A stretch of 33,782 bases of DNA from a virus: the IMG/VR virus record IMGVR_UViG_3300003885_000051, positions 1 through 33,782 of that record. One strand, given 5' to 3'. Below the pieces are notes generated by a model that made no database searches, had not been told where the DNA came from, and saw nothing but the letters and a program-made list of their open reading frames with translations. The first letter of the stretch is position 1. Every line of letters starts with the position of its first letter. This document shows, piece by piece, positions 1,737-22,792 of the stretch. The translations under genes were made by a program, and so were the position numbers.

Positions 1737-2288
1737 CTACACCTGGTTAAAAATAATATCACAATTAGCTGGTTTAACGCGATTAAATAAGCACTCAAGA
1801 ATAACAGCACCATTGCCGACGAATGATATTGGGAAAGGCAGTGGAAACGCTTGACTTATATTGAGTGAAAAATTTACATTAATCGTAAATTTAAGGTTTA
1901 TATTGGGGATAATTGTTACTGTTACACCGAATAAAGCGGCTAAATCTATAAAATCTTGTTCGGTTTGAACTCCGAGCGAAGCAAGTTTAACTAATACATT
2001 GCGTCTACGTTCGTCTATTGTCCCGGTACCAGAAAAACACAAATCTGGAATGCCAACAGAACTCTCCCACTCTTCAATTAGCAACGTCGTTGTTCTAATG
2101 TCGTACTCATCAGCTACAGACTTAATTACGCCCTCAGCGTCAAATAATGTTGAAGCTAGACCGATAAGCAAATTTCTAAAATTAGTATCTTTTACATTTG
2201 CTGCTCTAAACAACTCACCGCCCGGCATATATAAAGCGATTGAATCGGCGTGATCTTCAATGCTAAATTGTTTTATCAAGCGTGTCAT
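1737..2288 (-). CDS. Baseplate wedge protein, Mu gp48-like (YmfQ/DUF2313)
   Basis: A 183-residue protein of the DUF2313/YmfQ family, equivalent to Mu gp48. The N-terminus (YMPGGELFRA, residues 20-29) and the central E-W-E-S-S-V-G-I-P segment followed by the D-E-R-R-R-N-V-L helix are characteristic of the family. In contractile and some long tails this protein joins the baseplate J-type wedge and carries the fibre network. Its ATG overlaps the stop of the J-like gene (ATGA at 2285-2288), and the fibre gene follows at once, in keeping with its place between wedge and fibres. Confidence 0.87.
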   Translation of the reverse strand: MTRLIKQFSIEDHADSIALYMPGGELFRAANVKDTNFRNLLIGLASTLFDAEGVIKSVADEYDIRTTTLLIEEWESSVGIPDLCFSGTGTIDERRRNVLVKLASLGVQTEQDFIDLAALFGVTVTIIPNINLKFTINVNFSLNISQAFPLPFPISFVGNGAVILECLFNRVKPANCDIIFNQV

Positions 2289-3598
2289 AAGTTATACGTT
2301 ATCGTTCCAAGCGTTCCGATTTCACCTGAAGCTATTGTTACATCTCCCGGCGGTGAAGTGATAGTAAAGTTAACTACTACGTCTCCAGACGTTAAATCAA
2401 TACTATTAAATATCACTGACCTAAATGCATCTGATTCAACGTTAACGCCGACTTGCGTAGATTCATCAAAATATTGAGCTAAGTTCGTATTAATTGCGGT
2501 TTTCATTGCCTCAGTTCCAGGATTTAATATTGAGAACACAAAGTTTACAGGGATAGCTGTCGGAGCTAATACGATCACATCATTATCATGTGTATTTGCA
2601 GGTTTTATAGTCAGTATTTTATCTTTAACTTTTGTGATTTCGGTACCTGGCGGTATAGGGTTTTGATCGTTATCTCGCATAAAGTATACTGTTACCTGAC
2701 CTACTGCGGGTGTTACTTCTTGCACGAATACACGCGTTACCCCGTTTATTTCGCGAGCTATTGCTATTATCGCAAATACGTTAAAATGTGCTATTGCGTT
2801 TTGAATTCTAAACAAAAATCTTTTTCTAAAATCTGTTGTTGACTCTTGATCTGTGCCACCACTTATTTGATTAAAGGTAACGCCAGCATCGTTATCAACT
2901 CCTATAACGCCTTGAGTTAAAGTAAGTAAAGCATCAGCTAACACATTATTGCCAGCTCCGAACCCAGAACTTGCAACAGAGACTATAACATGCGTAGTTT
3001 GAAGCACCCCTGATCCTGTTGCCGGCGATGTAGGGTTGCCTGTAATTACATAAGTAAAGTCTGTGTTTGATATTATATTTACAGTAAATGCCCCGTTGTA
3101 CTCAACTTCAACAAAGCCAGAGATTGTCGCTTGAACGTTTGAAGCGATATTATGCCCGGCAGCTATATTTATAGTAACTACTTGACCAACTCGTGTAGCA
3201 CTAGTTATCGCCACATTTGAGGTCGCAATTGTCGCGTTAGCCAAAGTAACAAATATACTACCATCTGAACTTTTGTACTCCTGTGCAACCGGTATCACAG
3301 ATCCAGCGACTCCGGTTATCGCAATATTGCCGGTACTTTTTGTAGCTGGTAGTATTGTCACACCATACCATGAGGCCTGGATCTTTAAATATTCTTCTGA
3401 TGAAGTATTAAAGAATAACTCTTTTAATAAAACCTCAAGCTGTAAGTAAAAATCATAAACTCTATTTGAATATCCTGTAATTAAAGCACTAAGCCAATGG
3501 TTTTTTAGAAACGGATTAGTGCCTTTTAATTCTCTTTGTACGTCAGTTTTTGCTTTTGATACTAATTGACTTGCGCTATCTGGTATTTTAATTGGCAT
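2285..3598 (-). CDS. Baseplate J-like protein, Mu gp47-like
   Basis: A 437-residue baseplate wedge protein of the baseplate J / Mu gp47 family. Family features are the N-terminal amphipathic helices (to about residue 65, with FFNTSSEEYLKIQASWYGV), the ATKSTGNIAITGVAGSVIP segment (residues 83-101) and the G-G-T-D-Q-E-S-T-T-D-F-R-K-R motif near residue 250. Residues about 125-215 hold an inserted beta module (HNIASNVQATISGF, EYNGAFTV, TDFTYVITG) that also occurs in the tail terminator and the tailspike of this genome. It overlaps the upstream gp46-like gene by 11 nt and the downstream gp48-like gene by ATGA. Confidence 0.9.
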   Translation of the reverse strand: MPIKIPDSASQLVSKAKTDVQRELKGTNPFLKNHWLSALITGYSNRVYDFYLQLEVLLKELFFNTSSEEYLKIQASWYGVTILPATKSTGNIAITGVAGSVIPVAQEYKSSDGSIFVTLANATIATSNVAITSATRVGQVVTINIAAGHNIASNVQATISGFVEVEYNGAFTVNIISNTDFTYVITGNPTSPATGSGVLQTTHVIVSVASSGFGAGNNVLADALLTLTQGVIGVDNDAGVTFNQISGGTDQESTTDFRKRFLFRIQNAIAHFNVFAIIAIAREINGVTRVFVQEVTPAVGQVTVYFMRDNDQNPIPPGTEITKVKDKILTIKPANTHDNDVIVLAPTAIPVNFVFSILNPGTEAMKTAINTNLAQYFDESTQVGVNVESDAFRSVIFNSIDLTSGDVVVNFTITSPPGDVTIASGEIGTLGTITYNL

Positions 3599-4052
3599 TG
3601 CCGGTATTTTCCCACAATTTATAGTTTCGTTTCTCTACTGATGAGTTAGGACGCTCTATGGTTATTAGAATGTCAACACCATTATTCGTTATTACTGCGT
3701 CAGCTTTGACCGATATTGCAAATCCATCATCTATCATCCATTGCAACGATGATGTTGCGACAGAACTTATGCTATTTAATACGCTTCGAGTTAACCTTGA
3801 TTGATCGTAAAGCCATATTTTTGAGCCTATTTCAAACCCTGGCGTTTCTTCATTTCCGATCCATCCTCGACGATTCTTTGAAACTGGAACTTCTGATTCT
3901 GTAGCTCTTTGTTCACAAAATAAACTCATTAAAATAGACGTGTCAAAAAATTCTTCAGTTACAATATCTCCGTGAGCATCGATTGAAATATCGTATATCC
4001 CGTTAACTTTTGTTAATACTGCGTCAGTGATTTTTCCAGTTGAATTACTCAT
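3588..4052 (-). CDS. Baseplate wedge protein, Mu gp46-like
   Basis: A 154-residue protein of the phage GP46 family, the Mu counterpart of P2 gpW/T4 gp25 lysozyme-like wedge proteins. Recognisable parts are DISIDAHGDIVTEEFFDTSI (residues 20-39), then SLFCEQRATESEVP and RRGWIGNE. These proteins form part of the baseplate ring that joins the hub to the J-type wedge and take part in triggering sheath contraction. The start overlaps the gp45-like stop (ATGA at 4049-4052), and the end overlaps the J-like gene by 11 nt. Confidence 0.88.
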   Translation of the reverse strand: MSNSTGKITDAVLTKVNGIYDISIDAHGDIVTEEFFDTSILMSLFCEQRATESEVPVSKNRRGWIGNEETPGFEIGSKIWLYDQSRLTRSVLNSISSVATSSLQWMIDDGFAISVKADAVITNNGVDILITIERPNSSVEKRNYKLWENTGNAN

Positions 4053-5648: not shown

Positions 5649-6847
5649 TGGGTCACTATTTGTATCTCACCGTTCACGAATGACACGTTTGCTTCGTTGT
5701 TAAGTTCTGCTATTTCATTTCCTAAATTCGAACTACCGTAGTACTGATACGCTATAATTCGAGCCGGTAATCGCGGTGTTCTGACAGCAATAATTCGCTG
5801 TAACGTAACTCTGCGCGCTACGAAATAAGCATTTGATACCTCGCGCATATTAAGTAACGCTTCTCTTAGGTCAAATCCAAGATCAGTGTCGTAAATCATT
5901 GATTGATATTGATTTTCTAAATCTTGACCCGCTAAATCAAGATCATTTGTTGTTCTGTAATTGACTGAAACGGCAGCTAAATAACTGTAGCTTAATGATT
6001 CTGCTTTAACCGCTTTATTTATTACTAAATTATTAGACTCTTTCTCAATATTACTTGCTGTTATATTGATACTTGTTAAATCTTTATCGCCAAAGCCGAA
6101 AAGCTCTCTCCATGCAAAGATCTGGCTATCGACTGTCGCGAATAAGCCATTAAATGTCTGGCCTAGACTTGTCATGCTATCCGCTAATGCTTGTGGAGTT
6201 TGAATTAGATTATTAATCTCGGTACCAAAATCACTCACTAAGCTACTAAATGCGTCAACGTTATCAGTAATTGTAACGATTGTTTTTGTAGCATCTTCAT
6301 AAGCTTTTACATATTCATTCAGCTTTTCACGAGCATATCCAAAATTTGATATAAATCGTTTATCAACTTTAAAGCTATTTGCTGTGTTTTTATTTACTTC
6401 ACTTACAACCGCATCATTGGCAACGCTGACCAGACTTAACGTATCCTGGGTTGCTATTGGCGCACCGAGATCATCGTCAATCTCAAATAATATACTTATT
6501 TCACCACGGCCTAAGTCTGACATATTCTCAGTAAGACTAAATGTCCTTACTTTCATGTTCTTCAGTATGCCGTAGAGTGGGTGTGATAATTCTCCTTTCT
6601 CAGAACTTTCAAGAGCGGTTAATAATGCTTTTTTTCTGTCTAAATAGTCATCTTCACCCGAACTATTTGTTATCCAACCCTGTATTGAATAAGAACGTGG
6701 ATCTGCTCCGAAATCCTCAATCGACTGTTTATCGGAATTTGGGAATGAGTGTTTTTGGTCTTTTCGGCCACCGTCGACCGATGAACTTGATATTAAAAAT
6801 ACCGCTTTTTTATAAGAACATGGCAATAATTGCTCAAGTAATGACAT
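5645..6847 (-). CDS. Tail/DNA circularisation-type protein, Mu gp43-like (gpN, DNA_circ_N)
   Basis: A 400-residue protein whose first ~130 residues match the DNA_circ_N family: DGGRKDQKHSFPNSDKQSIE (residues 25-44) followed by DFGADPRSYSIQGWIT. In Mu this is gp43/gpN, a baseplate or tail-tube distal protein; the DNA circularisation name is historical. The central part is predicted helical (residues about 160-290) and the C-terminal part (RRVTLQRIIAVRTPRLPARI) is typical. It follows the tape measure gene with a TAATG overlap at 6847, as in other Mu-type tails. Confidence 0.87.
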   Translation of the reverse strand: MSLLEQLLPCSYKKAVFLISSSSVDGGRKDQKHSFPNSDKQSIEDFGADPRSYSIQGWITNSSGEDDYLDRKKALLTALESSEKGELSHPLYGILKNMKVRTFSLTENMSDLGRGEISILFEIDDDLGAPIATQDTLSLVSVANDAVVSEVNKNTANSFKVDKRFISNFGYAREKLNEYVKAYEDATKTIVTITDNVDAFSSLVSDFGTEINNLIQTPQALADSMTSLGQTFNGLFATVDSQIFAWRELFGFGDKDLTSINITASNIEKESNNLVINKAVKAESLSYSYLAAVSVNYRTTNDLDLAGQDLENQYQSMIYDTDLGFDLREALLNMREVSNAYFVARRVTLQRIIAVRTPRLPARIIAYQYYGSSNLGNEIAELNNEANVSFVNGEIQIVTQ

Positions 6848-8226
6848 TAGTAATTGGGTACCATATTGTTTCCGACGTTCAACTTAGTTGACCCGGATGA
6901 TTTCGATTTAATCGATTTAATTACGCCCTGTGGTGCGTTTAGATTTACATCTACTGTTGAGCTTGATTTGCTGTTTAAGCTACTATCAATCGTAGAGTTT
7001 TTAACTGTGCTATTATTTTCCGCGCTCACTCCATTAAAGAGATCTATGATTCCACCGATTACGATTCTCGGTATCGTATTTAAAAAGTCAATATTCTCAA
7101 ATACGATAGCAGCAGCGTCAACGGTTTTAGATGCTGCAGGTTCTATTTTGTTAAAGGATTCTATAGCTTTAGCCCCGATCACAGATCCAAGCCTGCTCGA
7201 TTTTTTGTTAAATGTGTTAAGTCTGATATTTGCCTGATCTTGCGCAACAGTCGTACCTTTTAATTTTTTCTCGAAATGTGTCAACATATTAATATTATTT
7301 AGTATAGAAAAACCGACTTTAGCGTGTTCCTCGCCAAATATTTTAGCGGCTAGTTGAGCTTTTTTCTGTGGGGTATCCATATTCTCAAGGGCTGTTTTTA
7401 TTTTCATAAAGCTACCCTCTAAACCGAGCTTGTTAAAATCAATACCTGCTCTTTGCAGTCTTCCAAGCATGGCGTTTAACGCCGTACCAGCCTGAGATCC
7501 TTTAATACCACCAAGTGCAACCGTTTGTATTGCCGCGTTTAATTGGTTAAAACTTAGTCCTGCGGCTCGCGCTGCTGGACCAGCTAACAATATTGCCTCG
7601 CCAGTATCTCGTATTTCAGATGCGCCGAATTTTGATCCAGCAGCTAAGATATTAACGTACTTAGCTGCAAAGTTAGCATTTTTACCAAAGATGTTTAAGC
7701 TTTGTGCTGCTACGTTTGCAGATGCTTCAAGCTCAAGTCCTGACGCATTGCTTAATAATAGAACTTGTTCTGTTACTTTTGCTAATGCCTTAGTATCTTC
7801 AAGTAATTCAGGCTTTGCAGATGCGACTAATTTAAAAGCTGTGGCAATCTCGCTTGCAGATTTAATCGATACTTTACTTAATCTTAAGGCTTCAGTTTGT
7901 AGAAATTTAAGCTGTTTTCCGGATGCTCCGGTAATAGCCTCCAAGTCTGCCATTGAATCTTGGAATGTTGCTCCAACTTCAACCACTTTTTTAATTGCCA
8001 TTCCTGCTATCGCAACAGATGCCAAGCCTTTCAACGAACTTGCGAAACCACCTGCAGCTGCCGACATGTTCTTGAACTTTTTGTTTAGCCTGTCAGAGTC
8101 GCGACCCATTTTTCGAGAAGTTTTAGCGAACCGTGAAGCCATCTTTTTGTTAGCAACGTCAACTTTACGCCCAACTTTTGAGAACTTGTCTTGAGCTATA
8201 ATATTGTAAGTAACATTGAAAGCCAT
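6847..8226 (-). CDS. Tail tape measure protein, TP901 type
   Basis: A 459-residue tape measure protein. The TP901 core is clear: FQDSMADLEAITGASGKQL (residues 88-106), then KVSIKSASEIATAFKLVASA, AGPAARAAGLSFNQLNAA, and GIKGSQAGTALNAMLGRL. The N-terminal ~60 residues are highly basic and helical. A hydrophobic helix lies around residues 60-80. The C-terminal 70 residues are Ser/Asn-rich. It is short for a myovirus; at the commonly used 0.15 nm per residue it would set a tail near 70 nm, which is inference. The ATG overlaps the stop of the frameshifted chaperone (TAATG at 8224-8228). Confidence 0.9.
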   Translation of the reverse strand: MAFNVTYNIIAQDKFSKVGRKVDVANKKMASRFAKTSRKMGRDSDRLNKKFKNMSAAAGGFASSLKGLASVAIAGMAIKKVVEVGATFQDSMADLEAITGASGKQLKFLQTEALRLSKVSIKSASEIATAFKLVASAKPELLEDTKALAKVTEQVLLLSNASGLELEASANVAAQSLNIFGKNANFAAKYVNILAAGSKFGASEIRDTGEAILLAGPAARAAGLSFNQLNAAIQTVALGGIKGSQAGTALNAMLGRLQRAGIDFNKLGLEGSFMKIKTALENMDTPQKKAQLAAKIFGEEHAKVGFSILNNINMLTHFEKKLKGTTVAQDQANIRLNTFNKKSSRLGSVIGAKAIESFNKIEPAASKTVDAAAIVFENIDFLNTIPRIVIGGIIDLFNGVSAENNSTVKNSTIDSSLNSKSSSTVDVNLNAPQGVIKSIKSKSSGSTKLNVGNNMVPNY

Positions 8227-14796: not shown

Positions 14797-15213
14797 TTAA
14801 ACATTAACCGTTTCTGCTGGCGGTCTGGATTTTTTATGCCCTCTAACCGCCATGATCCCAAAAGTACCACCTGTAGTAACTGCTATACTGACGATCGATA
14901 TCCTCTGATATCGCATTTTACCAATTGAGCCGACATGCCTGGCTGAATTTTGCTGCACTGACGTAAAGCGTGGTAATTCTAACAACGTGTTATCAGCAGG
15001 TACTAATGTTGCTCCTACCATCCCGGGATCATCACTTTCTTCAAGAATAATATCGTAAGTTCCGTCTGTGATGCTTCCCGCGTGCACTAAATACGTCAAT
15101 GATTCATAACCCATGCTGTCCTGAGTCAATCCTACGGTTGTTGTATTCGCTGTAATCGCTGCAATATGTAATGCCGGTTCTTCAGTAATGCTATGTGCTA
15201 AATCATACTCCAC
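14797..15213 (-). CDS. Probable capsid decoration protein, copy 2
   Basis: A 138-residue protein, a paralogue of the gene just upstream (also 138 residues; about half of positions identical by eye, no gaps needed). Shared blocks are PAL (13-15), ANTTT (22-26), AGxITDGxY (45-53), LEESDDP (56-62), ELPRF, the 11-residue GSIGKMRYQRI and the C-terminal ETVNV. Position after the major capsid gene and high copy-type composition suggest a capsid decoration or minor head protein. The function is inferred; the family name is not known to me. Hydrophobic beta segments dominate and no Cys is present. Confidence 0.72.
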   Translation of the reverse strand: MEYDLAHSITEEPALHIAAITANTTTVGLTQDSMGYESLTYLVHAGSITDGTYDIILEESDDPGMVGATLVPADNTLLELPRFTSVQQNSARHVGSIGKMRYQRISIVSIAVTTGGTFGIMAVRGHKKSRPPAETVNV

Positions 15214-15228
15214 TTTAGATACTCCTTA

Positions 15229-15645
15229 TTAAACGTTTACAGTTTCAGAAGTTGGTGCGCTTTTAGCGTTTCCTAGCAGCGCTACTGCTGACATTACAGC
15301 TCCTGTGGTAACAATTGTTGATACTATGTTTATTCTTTGATATCGCATCTTGCCAATTGAGCCGAAGTGACGAACAGTATCACTATCTGTGGCTCTGAAT
15401 CGTGGTAATTCGCCGATTGTTTCATCTGGCACCACCGGTGTTGGGACTGTCATTACGGGGTCGTCACTTTCTTCTAAAACAGTGTTATACACGCCGTCAG
15501 TGATTGCCCCGGCTTGAATAATGAATGTAAGCGATTCAAATCCGAGTGTGTCGACAATCTCGCCAATCGTAGTTGTGTTTGCGCCAATGGTTTGACTGTT
15601 TAAAGCTGGTGCATCACCCGCTCTTGATGAAATTTCATATTCCAT
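15229..15645 (-). CDS. Probable capsid decoration protein, copy 1
   Basis: A 138-residue protein, first of a tandem pair after the major capsid gene. It shares with its downstream copy the blocks ANTTT, FESLT/YESLT, ITDG, LEESDDP, ELPRF, GSIGKMRYQRI and ETVNV. The two differ most at residues 4-20 and 63-75, which may be surface loops. Between capsid gene and this gene lies a strong terminator-like hairpin, so this pair may be expressed at a level lower than the capsid protein. A role on the capsid exterior is inferred from order only. Confidence 0.72.
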   Translation of the reverse strand: MEYEISSRAGDAPALNSQTIGANTTTIGEIVDTLGFESLTFIIQAGAITDGVYNTVLEESDDPVMTVPTPVVPDETIGELPRFRATDSDTVRHFGSIGKMRYQRINIVSTIVTTGAVMSAVALLGNAKSAPTSETVNV

Positions 15646-19654: not shown

Positions 19655-20929
19655 TTATTTATCCCTCACTAATTTAGGTTCGTCTTTAAATATGTCGGTC
19701 GCTATTGGCATCATTGATGATGAAATATATACTTCGTCTCCACCTTCTACATCCTCACGGCCCACCATAGCGCGTAATTCGTTAAGTGATTCAATATTTA
19801 ATTCTTTACGTAGTTTTAAATTCTCATTCCTACGACTTTCTAAGGCTGTAATTTTATCAGGATTGTAAGTGATTTTAACTTTTGTTACATCTAAGCCATA
19901 TCGCGGGACCAGTAATTGAGACAGCCCGGAAAACAGTCTATCAGCTAGCGGTAGTACTGCGTCATCATATAAAGCCAGTTTAGCAGCAGCATAATTATTG
20001 AATGTTGATGCATCGGTAGTAACTAATGGCAACGGTACTTTGTATTGCAAAGCTACAGCTCTTTGTGCCATTTGCTGCATGTTTACAAAATCCATATCTT
20101 TGTTGCTCGTGCCCAATTCCTGAATATCAAGTTTGCCACCGGATGTTACGCCGATCGACCCGGCTTTGGTTGAACCTCCGTACTTTGTGTGTATCGCTGC
20201 TTCCGCTGCTTTGAATTCGTCTACACTTAAATCATCCTCAATATTGAATACTAACGATAATTTACCACCATTTTCCAAAAGTGCGACGTTATGAGCGTTA
20301 CCTTTGATGTGCTGTCTTGCTTCGGCACTCGCTGATCGTAATGGAGACATACCGCGTAATAATGAATTATGACGTGGCGAAAAATTACGGGTTTGCTTAA
20401 GCTCTTTCAAATTTCCTTGCAAATATCGAGCCTTGCTCTTTATCGTAATTAAATTGTATTGCCCTGGCATTGTGTTACCCGAGATTATCATTGATTGACT
20501 AATACCGCCTGTTCCTTCGTTAACTGACAAATTTGATGGGCTTATAGGCTGTAGTTCAAGCGGTGGCCTATTGACTCCGCCGATTGCAATAATTACTTCT
20601 TCGCCCGTTATTAAATAATCTTTTGCTAATGCTTCAAAAAACAGCTCTTTAGTATAGTAGGGGCTTGGAATATTCAATAAATCTAATATAGGATGCTTAG
20701 TCTCGAAAGAACCGTCGATTTCGAGTACCGGCGTAATCGATGCAAAAGCATCGGCTATCATATTAATCGGGATGCTAACTGCTGTCGAACTTTCATATAA
20801 TGCGAGTGCTGAAGCAGCCGTGGTAGCGTGTCCTTGCATGCCAAAGCTAAAAAATTTACCTAGCTCATCATTTAATCCTAGAACAACTGAATTTGAATGT
20901 GACTTTTTCTCCCAGAATTTCCAATTCAC
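19655..20929 (-). CDS. Portal protein, HK97 family
   Basis: A 424-residue portal protein starting at GTG 20929, with AGGA 11 nt upstream; the start MNWKFWEKK is typical. Family segments include ALALYESSTAVSIPINMIAD (residues 40-59), the central LRGMSPLRSASAEARQHI, and the C-terminal DFVNMQQMAQRAVALQYKVP with an F-N-N-Y motif followed by ALYDDAVLPLADRLFSGL. Twelve copies would form the ring through which DNA is packaged and ejected. It starts 1 nt after the stop of the terminase C-terminal frame (TAG at 20931-20933), supporting that frame as real coding sequence. Confidence 0.92.
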   Translation of the reverse strand: MNWKFWEKKSHSNSVVLGLNDELGKFFSFGMQGHATTAASALALYESSTAVSIPINMIADAFASITPVLEIDGSFETKHPILDLLNIPSPYYTKELFFEALAKDYLITGEEVIIAIGGVNRPPLELQPISPSNLSVNEGTGGISQSMIISGNTMPGQYNLITIKSKARYLQGNLKELKQTRNFSPRHNSLLRGMSPLRSASAEARQHIKGNAHNVALLENGGKLSLVFNIEDDLSVDEFKAAEAAIHTKYGGSTKAGSIGVTSGGKLDIQELGTSNKDMDFVNMQQMAQRAVALQYKVPLPLVTTDASTFNNYAAAKLALYDDAVLPLADRLFSGLSQLLVPRYGLDVTKVKITYNPDKITALESRRNENLKLRKELNIESLNELRAMVGREDVEGGDEVYISSSMMPIATDIFKDEPKLVRDK

Positions 20930-20930
20930 G

Positions 20931-21344
20931 CTACATTGTTCCTATATTCGTTCTTGTTTGGCTTTTGACCATTAAATATGTTAATCCCCAGACTAATGCG
21001 TCTAGTCTGTCGGGTGAACCGGTTGAATTCTCTGGTTCCCATTGCGTTAATTCTTCTTCAAGATCTGGCATTGCTTCTAAATGGGTTACTGAACACTGTG
21101 AATACTCATTAGTTTCATATAATGCTGCTACCGGCTCAGCTCTTGCGAATTTACCTTTACTTGCATGGACTTTAACAACTTTAACATTAGGGTCGATATT
21201 TTTAATGACATCTTCTACTAAATCGCCACCCTGATTAACTTCGGCAACTATAGCGTTTGCATTATATGCATAATAAGCGTTAACAGCTCTTTGTGCCCAT
21301 TTTTTGGTTGATTCTTTTTTAGATAGATCAGCTTGAACTACAGA
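20931..21344 (-). CDS. Large terminase, C-terminal nuclease half, in a shifted frame
   Basis: This frame has no start codon at its left part and continues the large terminase in the +1 frame. It reads ...VVQADLSKKESTKKWAQRAV, then ANAIVAEVNQGGDLVED, VHASKGKFARAEPVAALYE, LEEELTQWEP and finally SPDRLDALVWGLTY. These are the conserved C-terminal segments of large terminases, including the RNase H-like nuclease acidic residues (D-L-V, and the final D-A). The frame is closed upstream by TAG at 21345-21347. The N-terminal half ends in the 0 frame at 21328. See the finding on the split. Confidence 0.85.
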   Translation of the reverse strand, partial: SVVQADLSKKESTKKWAQRAVNAYYAYNANAIVAEVNQGGDLVEDVIKNIDPNVKVVKVHASKGKFARAEPVAALYETNEYSQCSVTHLEAMPDLEEELTQWEPENSTGSPDRLDALVWGLTYLMVKSQTRTNIGTM

Positions 21345-22314
21345 CTACTATTCCACACGTATCGCTATTTTTGTTGTTTGATACAATCGGATCAACTGCA
21401 ATAACTGTTCTGACAATCTCTCCGTACGGTTTATCGCGGGCATCCTTGATCATTTTATCAGACCAAAGCGCGCCTTCTGCCGCTACTCTGTCTTTGCCAT
21501 CCCAAATATTGTTGTATTTCGATACTGGCCACATTTTTTTATTTCTGAGCCTTTTTTTCTCAAGGACTTCAGGAAACCAAAAATTATCTGTGTAATGCAT
21601 CTGAATTATCATGATTGTATCATCTTCATAATATCGATGTTTTTTTAGCTCTTTTTCGTAAGGCTTCAAATGTTCGACGCTAATTGGGTCGGTTACTTTA
21701 CCTCTGTTTAACGTATACCAGATTTCTGACCCTTTCTTTCTGGCGGTTGGTTCGATTATCTCAAGTGATTTTTCGCTAATTACCTCGGCTTCTTCTATCC
21801 AGAAATCATCGAAGTCATCCATTGACTTAATGCCGGTTGGGTTACGTGCTATCCCTCGATATTTAACTGATCCACCATTTTCATGTAAAATTCGTTTTTC
21901 TTGTATCTCGAATCCGTAAAAGTTTAATTCTCGTATTTTCTTGGAAATTAAGGAATGTACTGAATCCTCTATTGTTGTCTGGAATTCTCTGAACGCGCCT
22001 ACTTTATGGCCGTAGTCTTTGACTCTGGCTGACATTATTGTTGAGACTGTTTCACTCTTGCTTGACCCTCGTCCACCGTCCAATATCTTAATAGGCTTTG
22101 GTATTATCAAAGCCCGTTCTGCTACTTCGGGTATATTGACGTCCGGTACCATATCAACTTCTACGAACTCACCATCCTGGTCTTGCCAGCATCGAACTAA
22201 TTTACCGGTTTTAGACACTATCCCATAAACAGTCATTCGCTTTGACTTTCGACGTTGCTGCTCAATTACCGCTGCCGCTTTCATTTCTAACTCTTGTCTA
22301 GCTGCTGATGGCAT
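21328..22314 (-). CDS. Large terminase, N-terminal ATPase half (frame ends early)
   Basis: A 328-residue product with a ~70-residue N-terminal extension before the motor. Walker A is GGRGSSKS (residues 80-87) and the Walker B-like motif is DDFWIEEAE (169-177). The start of the nuclease domain, AVDPIVSNNKNSDTCGIVV (306-324), is present with D308, but the frame then ends (CSSS, stop). The rest of the nuclease domain is in the +1 frame at 20931-21344. A full protein would be about 460 residues. It packages DNA into proheads through the portal and cuts the concatemer. The gene overlaps the small terminase by 17 nt. Confidence 0.88.
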   Translation of the reverse strand: MPSAARQELEMKAAAVIEQQRRKSKRMTVYGIVSKTGKLVRCWQDQDGEFVEVDMVPDVNIPEVAERALIIPKPIKILDGGRGSSKSETVSTIMSARVKDYGHKVGAFREFQTTIEDSVHSLISKKIRELNFYGFEIQEKRILHENGGSVKYRGIARNPTGIKSMDDFDDFWIEEAEVISEKSLEIIEPTARKKGSEIWYTLNRGKVTDPISVEHLKPYEKELKKHRYYEDDTIMIIQMHYTDNFWFPEVLEKKRLRNKKMWPVSKYNNIWDGKDRVAAEGALWSDKMIKDARDKPYGEIVRTVIAVDPIVSNNKNSDTCGIVVCSSS

Positions 22315-22792
22315 CGATTATGTCTTGTAGTTCCTGGTCTGATAGTCCGGTTAGGTTGATTGCACCTAAATGTTTAGTTTGGTCAATCATTAGCCCGTGT
22401 AACTTTGCCTTCACACTGCTTGAGCCTGTCATGTTCGCGGGTTGCTTTAGTTTCTTTGCCATATTAAAAGACTCGTAAAGTTCCTGACTGATTGTCTCAA
22501 CGGTTACTAAGTGGTTTTGCGTTGATAGTTCCTGTAATTCCTTAATCCTTGATTGGACTTTGACGTTATTGAAAGCCCTTGCTGATAATTCCCATATAGA
22601 TTTAGTGGTAGATTTGCTGTTTGGATGAAGTGCTCTATATGCATCTGATTGATTACCATGATGTAGTATATAAGCTTGTGCTAATTCTTCCTGCTTCTGT
22701 GTTAGTCCTTGCTTTGTCTTTGGCTTGCCGCGTGGCTTTGCTTTCTTCTTACTGACTCCTTTCTTTTTAGCTGATTTCTTTTTAGTTGCCAT
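22298..22792 (-). CDS. Terminase small subunit (Terminase_2 type)
   Basis: A 164-residue protein. After a very Lys-rich tail (residues 1-28) comes GLTQKQEELAQAYILHHGNQ (29-48) followed by SDAYRALHP, the N-terminal HTH of the Terminase_2 small-subunit family. Next come a W-E-L-S helix and an oligomerisation helical region (70-130). The C-terminus has LSDQELQDIIDAISS, typical of these proteins. It recognises pac or cos DNA and stimulates the large subunit, whose ATG overlaps by 17 nt. The basic tail may add nonspecific DNA binding. Confidence 0.88.
   Translation of the reverse strand: MATKKKSAKKKGVSKKKAKPRGKPKTKQGLTQKQEELAQAYILHHGNQSDAYRALHPNSKSTTKSIWELSARAFNNVKVQSRIKELQELSTQNHLVTVETISQELYESFNMAKKLKQPANMTGSSSVKAKLHGLMIDQTKHLGAINLTGLSDQELQDIIDAISS

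What the first reader, a model, noticed from the sequence alone, without database searches (positions are those of the whole stretch)
20931..22314. Large terminase split into two frames at a GTAGT-CT-GTAGT direct repeat
The ATPase half ends at 21328 just after the start of the nuclease domain (AVDP...DTCGIVV). The rest of the nuclease domain is in the +1 frame from 21344 to 20931 and is fully conserved. The frames overlap only over 21328-21344, where GTAGT occurs twice 2 nt apart. Compared with my recollection of related proteins, a beta hairpin of roughly 8-12 residues between GIVV and the ADLS segment also seems short. So this may be a small deletion with frame loss, an assembly collapse, or a +1 recoding event. 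Both halves are otherwise undamaged, and the portal gene begins 1 nt after the second half.
Basis: partly seen in the sequence, partly recalled or inferred. Interest (0 to 1): 0.6.

Follow-up and report, generated by a model that had tools for sequence, protein, structure and literature searches.

The report
Phage packaging gene broken by deletion
In this phage sequence the gene for the DNA-packaging motor is cut into two reading frames because a short stretch coding for a small hairpin is missing, most likely an ordinary damaging deletion (or a library or assembly error) and not a new way of making the protein.

Summary
In detail: the large terminase (TerL) gene is in two frames (22314-21328, then +1 frame 21344-20931), and the nuclease half has no ATG/GTG/TTG start before its residue 92. 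The interpretation narrows to loss of a short coding stretch. In 164 of 164 relatives with this nuclease type the frame runs unbroken through the site. From the glycine of GIVV to the aspartate of ADLS they have 16 residues or more (17 in 105); here it is 25 nt, 8.3 codons. About 26 nt are missing, so neither a 1-base error nor a ribosomal +1 shift accounts for the gap. In a confident model of an intact relative the missing residues are the end of strand 2, the turn and the start of strand 3. Homology in both frames overlaps on the second GTAGT (21341-21337), which fits a deletion between short repeats; this is inferred, since no intact parent was found. No recoding signal was found. Broken TerL frames are not rare: 4 of 257 relatives. 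Real mutation versus artefact needs the reads. Low interest. Side finding: this TerL joins an ATPase and a nuclease from different terminase lineages.

The parts
21328..22314 (-). TerL first half: ATPase domain, linker and first strands of the nuclease (DP motif, GIVV), ending at an out-of-place TGA
   Evidence: ORF list and translation; Pfam Terminase_3 residues 75-260; PHROG terminase large subunit
20931..21344 (-). TerL second half: rest of the nuclease domain in the +1 frame, no ATG/GTG/TTG start before residue 92
   Evidence: translation; Pfam Terminase_6C residues 9-122; start codon scan
21337..21341 (-). Second GTAGT: bases where both frames still match relatives (Cys-Ser in frame 0, Val-Val in +1); inferred deletion junction
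   Evidence: sequence; relatives GIVVAS.../...VDKDLS; the junction is inference
21344..21348 (-). First GTAGT: Val-Val codons of the conserved GIVV strand; probably incidental
   Evidence: sequence; five-base repeats at this spacing are common
21345..21347 (-). TAG that bounds the +1 frame upstream; any frame change must happen between here and the TGA at 21330-21328
21345..21489 (-). Linker and start of the nuclease domain; the lineage of the nearest relatives changes at about 21490
   Evidence: ATPase matches to L005-L009 stop at query residue 273-274
22298..22792 (-). Terminase small subunit, intact, overlapping the TerL start
   Evidence: PHROG 51, E 9.8e-14
19655..20929 (-). Portal protein, intact, starts 1 nt after the TerL stop
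   Evidence: PHROG 2662, E 2.2e-37; nearest relative L010, 63%

Best explanation
The TerL gene carries a small frame-breaking deletion in the beta2-beta3 hairpin of its RNase H-like nuclease domain. About 26 nt are gone (23 or 29 are also possible), a length of 3k+2, so the downstream part lies in the +1 frame. The likely route is slippage or end joining between two copies of GTAGT, one in the codons after GIVV and one at the start of the next strand, leaving one copy (21341-21337). As written, the ribosome stops three codons later at TGA; the cell would get an ATPase with a stub of nuclease and no DNA-cutting activity, so this genome copy could be packaged only with an intact TerL supplied by a sister genome. 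Shown: the two frames, the missing residues, the intact state of relatives. Inferred: the microhomology route, recency (the untranslated half has kept its frame and conserved residues), loss of function, and that the deletion is real in the sampled DNA.
For: G-to-D spacing is 16 or more in 164 of 164 relatives, 17 in 105, against 25 nt here. Frame unbroken through the site in 164 of 164. L011, whose portal is 43% like the window's, has GIVVASRYEDKSLSVDKDLS where the window has GIVVCS / VVQADLS. AlphaFold2 model of the L011 nuclease (mean pLDDT 90.1): strands 28-36, 48-56 and 61-66; the missing residues are the end of the second strand, the turn and the start of the third; the model matches TerL nucleases and RuvC-like folds in the PDB. 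The second half still holds residues invariant in the five-sequence alignment, such as E35, G39, G40, R68, E70 and D115. Broken TerL frames occur in 4 of 257 relatives.
Against: No near-identical intact genome was found, so the parent sequence, the exact length and the repeat at its far end are not seen (the tool may leave out records very near the window). No reads were available. The genes flanking TerL are intact, so there is no sign of general decay. One relative, L225, is also split in the same domain, 8-10 codons upstream, which could hint at a recurrent site.
Confidence: 0.62

Rival explanations
1. Library or assembly artefact: a chimeric read, or a minor deleted variant chosen by the assembler, lost about 26 nt; most genomes in the sample have an intact TerL.
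For: The record is a virus contig with no named isolate. The rest of the head module is intact, and the untranslated half has kept its frame.
Against: A loss of about 26 nt is not the usual one-base sequencing error (inference). The TerL chimera itself is not a sign of misassembly: 4 of 93 ATPase relatives join a similar ATPase to this nuclease type in one ORF.
Confidence: 0.28
2. Recoding: a +1 ribosomal shift in the 17-base overlap, or a short hop between the matched GUA codons at 21348-21346 and 21341-21339, makes a full TerL with a trimmed hairpin.
For: The frames overlap, both halves are conserved, and GUA occurs in frame 0 and again in the +1 frame 7 nt on. A review says that Streptomyces phage Hau3 may use bypassing to make its terminase (PMC5009743, passages).
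Against: The product would lack about 8-9 residues present in 164 of 164 relatives. None of the 164 shares the split. The review gives CUU_U as the highly conserved RF2 site and a Shine-Dalgarno 3 nt before a +1 site; neither is here. The downstream RNA folds no better than shuffles, z +0.41.
Confidence: 0.06
3. Two separately started proteins that assemble into one terminase.
For: Both halves are open and carry conserved domains.
Against: In the second frame the first ATG/GTG/TTG is at residue 92 of 137; only ATA, ATT and ATC occur earlier. The DP aspartate is in the first half and the other conserved acidic residues are in the second, so neither half holds the whole set. None of 164 relatives is arranged this way.
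Confidence: 0.02

Closest known systems
Terminase_3 / Terminase_6C large terminases of tailed phages
   Same: Both domains present and conserved; gene order TerS-TerL-portal
   Different: Frame broken in the nuclease hairpin; the ATPase and nuclease come from different TerL lineages
Frame-disrupted TerL genes in metagenomic contigs and genomes (L225, L138, L246, L252)
   Same: TerL no longer one open frame
   Different: Different positions and kinds: L225 a short shift upstream of GIVAAG with the hairpin intact; L138 lacks the ATPase; L246 and L252 hold several in-frame stops
Putative translational bypassing in the terminase of Streptomyces phage Hau3
   Same: A terminase gene proposed to be read discontinuously (review PMC5009743, passages)
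   Different: That case is linked to a UUA codon and a KGWG nascent peptide; the window has neither at the site. The primary paper was not held
Release factor 2 +1 frameshift
   Same: +1 change of frame before a UGA
   Different: No CUU_U shift site and no Shine-Dalgarno 3 nt upstream; not conserved in relatives

Membership tests
Large terminase (TerL) | Terminase ATPase domain | tested here: met
   Pfam Terminase_3, 99 bits against cut-off 23.2
Large terminase (TerL) | RNase H-like nuclease domain | tested here: met
   Terminase_6C, 46.1 bits against cut-off 22.6, but its first strands are in the other frame
Large terminase (TerL) | ATPase and nuclease in one open frame | tested here: not met
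Programmed +1 frameshift (RF2 type) | Slippery P-site codon able to re-pair in +1 (CUU_U or UUU_U) | tested here: not met
   Frame-0 codons in the overlap are GTC TGT AGT TCA AGC TGA; shift-site rule from PMC5009743
Programmed +1 frameshift (RF2 type) | Shine-Dalgarno-like element 3 nt before the shift site | tested here: not met
   The nearest GGA lies 22-24 nt before the TGA; spacing rule from PMC5009743
Programmed +1 frameshift (RF2 type) | Same frame architecture kept in relatives | tested here: not met
   0 of 164
[quoted passage not shown]
   GTA at 21348-21346 and 21341-21339 match, but such short repeats are common
Translational bypassing (gene 60 type) | Extra non-coding bases between two otherwise complete halves | tested here: not met
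   Coding sequence is missing, not added
Translational bypassing (gene 60 type) | Fused protein product | not testable with these tools
   Needs proteomics
Microhomology deletion | Relatives have extra sequence at the site, with length of the form 3k+2 | tested here: met
   Spacing 16-29 residues in 164 of 164 against 25 nt
Microhomology deletion | Short direct repeat at both ends in the parent | not testable with these tools
   No parent found

The most novel reading that the evidence does not exclude
The ribosome changes frame or hops between matched GUA codons in this TerL mRNA and makes one working terminase whose nuclease lacks the usual hairpin turn: a recoded packaging motor with a minimal RNase H sheet.
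Probability: 0.05. Interest if true: 0.6.

Novelty: new member of a known kind. Interest (0 to 1): 0.12.

Why it matters
As it stands it matters little: one more broken terminase gene in an environmental contig, useful as a caution when TerL is used as a marker gene (a split TerL gives two partial hits). If recoding were shown, a core packaging enzyme would tolerate loss of a conserved hairpin, which would surprise specialists.

Tried and rejected
Group I intron or other known RNA element at the site: no Rfam match in the window. Recoding signals: no suitable slippery codon and no spaced Shine-Dalgarno; no stable downstream fold. Separate start for the second half: none before residue 92. TGA read as sense: the frame would reach TAA three codons later (sequence). 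Simple one-base error: rejected because the hairpin would still be about 8 residues short. Assembly chimera joining two phages: weakened, because a similar ATPase-nuclease pairing occurs in single ORFs of L220, L235, L240 and L249. Near relatives for reading the parent sequence: none, and no megablast match of window 10000-33782 in the phage records (the first 9999 bases were not given). A PDB sequence search with the L011 TerL gave 0 matches; the fold search gave matches. Literature: 'split terminase' found 0 papers. The listings were scanned as listings only; passages were read in PMC8008677, PMC12846349 and PMC5009743.

Full report
What is there. The window is the whole of a 33,782-base virus record. 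On the minus strand a packaging and head module runs from the terminase small subunit (22792-22298) through TerL to the portal (20929-19655), head morphogenesis protein, protease and major head protein, followed by a contractile-tail module. TerL is in two pieces. The first ORF (22314-21328, 328 aa) holds the Terminase_3 ATPase and the first strands of the nuclease. The second (21344-20931, 137 aa) holds the rest of the Terminase_6C nuclease in the +1 frame. The change of frame must lie between the TAG at 21347-21345 and the TGA at 21330-21328. The portal start lies 1 nt after the TerL stop.

Is the second half a gene of its own? The first ATG, GTG or TTG in its frame is at residue 92 of 137; before it there are only ATA (32), ATT (47) and ATC (50). 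The aspartate of the DP motif is in the first half, and the conserved E35 and D115 are in the second, so neither half has the complete set of conserved acidic residues. That these residues form the active site is recalled knowledge of TerL nucleases and was not tested here.

Relatives. Of the 177 loci then held, 164 have a match to the second half at 1e-5; the other 13 had been fetched by ATPase or portal. In 164 of 164 the frame is open from the DP motif through the site. The number of residues from the G of GIVV to the D of ADLS is 16 in 8, 17 in 105 and 19-29 in 51. In the window the same distance is 25 nt. A +1 shift or a one-base error would therefore leave about 8 residues, half of the shortest seen. 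The usual spacing of 17 implies a loss of 26 nt; 16 implies 23 and 18 implies 29. Of 373 named phage records matching an intact nuclease domain (that of L101), 369 hold at least 80% of it in one place, and the 40 listed each match in one piece. In nine phage records the TerL ORF is open from ATPase to nuclease, including Cronobacter phage ENT47670, where the gene is merely not annotated.

What is missing. L011, a phage contig whose portal is 43% like the window's, reads DECGIVVASRYEDKSLSVDKDLS. The window reads DTCGIVVCS and then VVQADLS. An AlphaFold2 model of the L011 nuclease domain from 44 sequences (mean pLDDT 90.1, pTM 0.88) has strands at 28-36, 48-56 and 61-66, with the invariant G at 49 and D at 66. 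The missing residues, roughly 55-61, are the end of the second strand, the turn and the start of the third. The model matches TerL nucleases (Sf6, G20c, T4, RB49, HK97) and RuvC-like resolvases in the PDB.

How it probably arose. Frame-0 similarity continues through Cys-Ser, and +1 similarity starts at Val-Val; both use the same five bases, GTAGT at 21341-21337. This is what a deletion between two copies of GTAGT leaves behind. It is an inference, since no parent sequence was found.

Recoding. A review of recoding (PMC5009743, passages) gives the conserved RF2 shift site as CUU_U, with a Shine-Dalgarno element 3 nt before a +1 site. The codons here (GTC TGT AGT TCA AGC TGA) offer no such site, the nearest GGA is 22-24 nt before the TGA, and the downstream RNA folds no better than shuffles (z +0.41). 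[quoted passage not shown] that case skips a short gap near a UUA codon, whereas here coding sequence is missing. The primary paper was not held.

How unusual is a broken TerL? Among 257 relatives (164 by nuclease, 93 by ATPase, no overlap; L009 and L188 are the same contig), four have a TerL frame that is broken or lacks a domain: L225, L138, L246 and L252. L012 and L182 were flagged by the script but have open TerL frames. L225 also breaks inside the nuclease domain, 8-10 codons upstream of the window's site, but its hairpin is intact and the shift goes the other way. That leans slightly against pure chance and is reported as such.

A mosaic TerL. The ATPase half is 57-64% identical to L005-L009, which carry a different nuclease, and the similarity stops at residue 273-274, at about 21490. 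Of 93 ATPase relatives, 4 carry the window's nuclease type in the same ORF (L220, L235, L240, L249), and L225 carries it in another frame. The combination is uncommon but natural, which weakens the idea that the contig is a misjoin.

Verdict. The most likely cause is an ordinary frame-breaking deletion; a library or assembly artefact is the main rival, and only reads can decide between them. Recoding and two-protein readings have little support.

Noticed in passing
window 21490 (within 20931-22314): TerL is mosaic: ATPase nearest L005-L009 (57-64%), nuclease of another type nearest L002, L011 and others; the pairing is seen in one ORF in 4 of 93 ATPase relatives.
   Followed up: partly
L225:3226-3345: TerL of this contig is also split inside the nuclease domain, before GIVAAG, with the hairpin intact.
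   Followed up: partly
L246 and L252, TerL frame: Several in-frame TAG and TGA codons (one TAA in L252) in otherwise conserved TerL, one stop shared at EVQ*SVIKG; pseudogenes, hypermutation or a changed code not resolved.
   Followed up: partly
L138 (about 2000-3700): A 6C-type nuclease domain without its ATPase in an alphaproteobacterial genome contig.
   Followed up: no
L011:4200-4440: Long array of imperfect CATAGC/CAGAGC/CATCGC repeats between TerL and portal.
   Followed up: no
window 14797-15213 and 15229-15645: Two adjacent similar 138-aa genes after the capsid gene, apparently a tandem duplication (by eye).
   Followed up: no
window 6847-8226: Tape measure protein of 459 aa, short against the PHROG profiles that it matches (19 of 20 are 625-2006 positions).
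   Followed up: no
window 20931-21344: The nuclease half has an extra stretch of about 4-5 residues after LYE (TNEYSQ) relative to four relatives.
   Followed up: no
L187:1-1860: The MetMV terminase ORF has a long N-terminal part that looks like an intein or homing endonuclease by eye.
   Followed up: no
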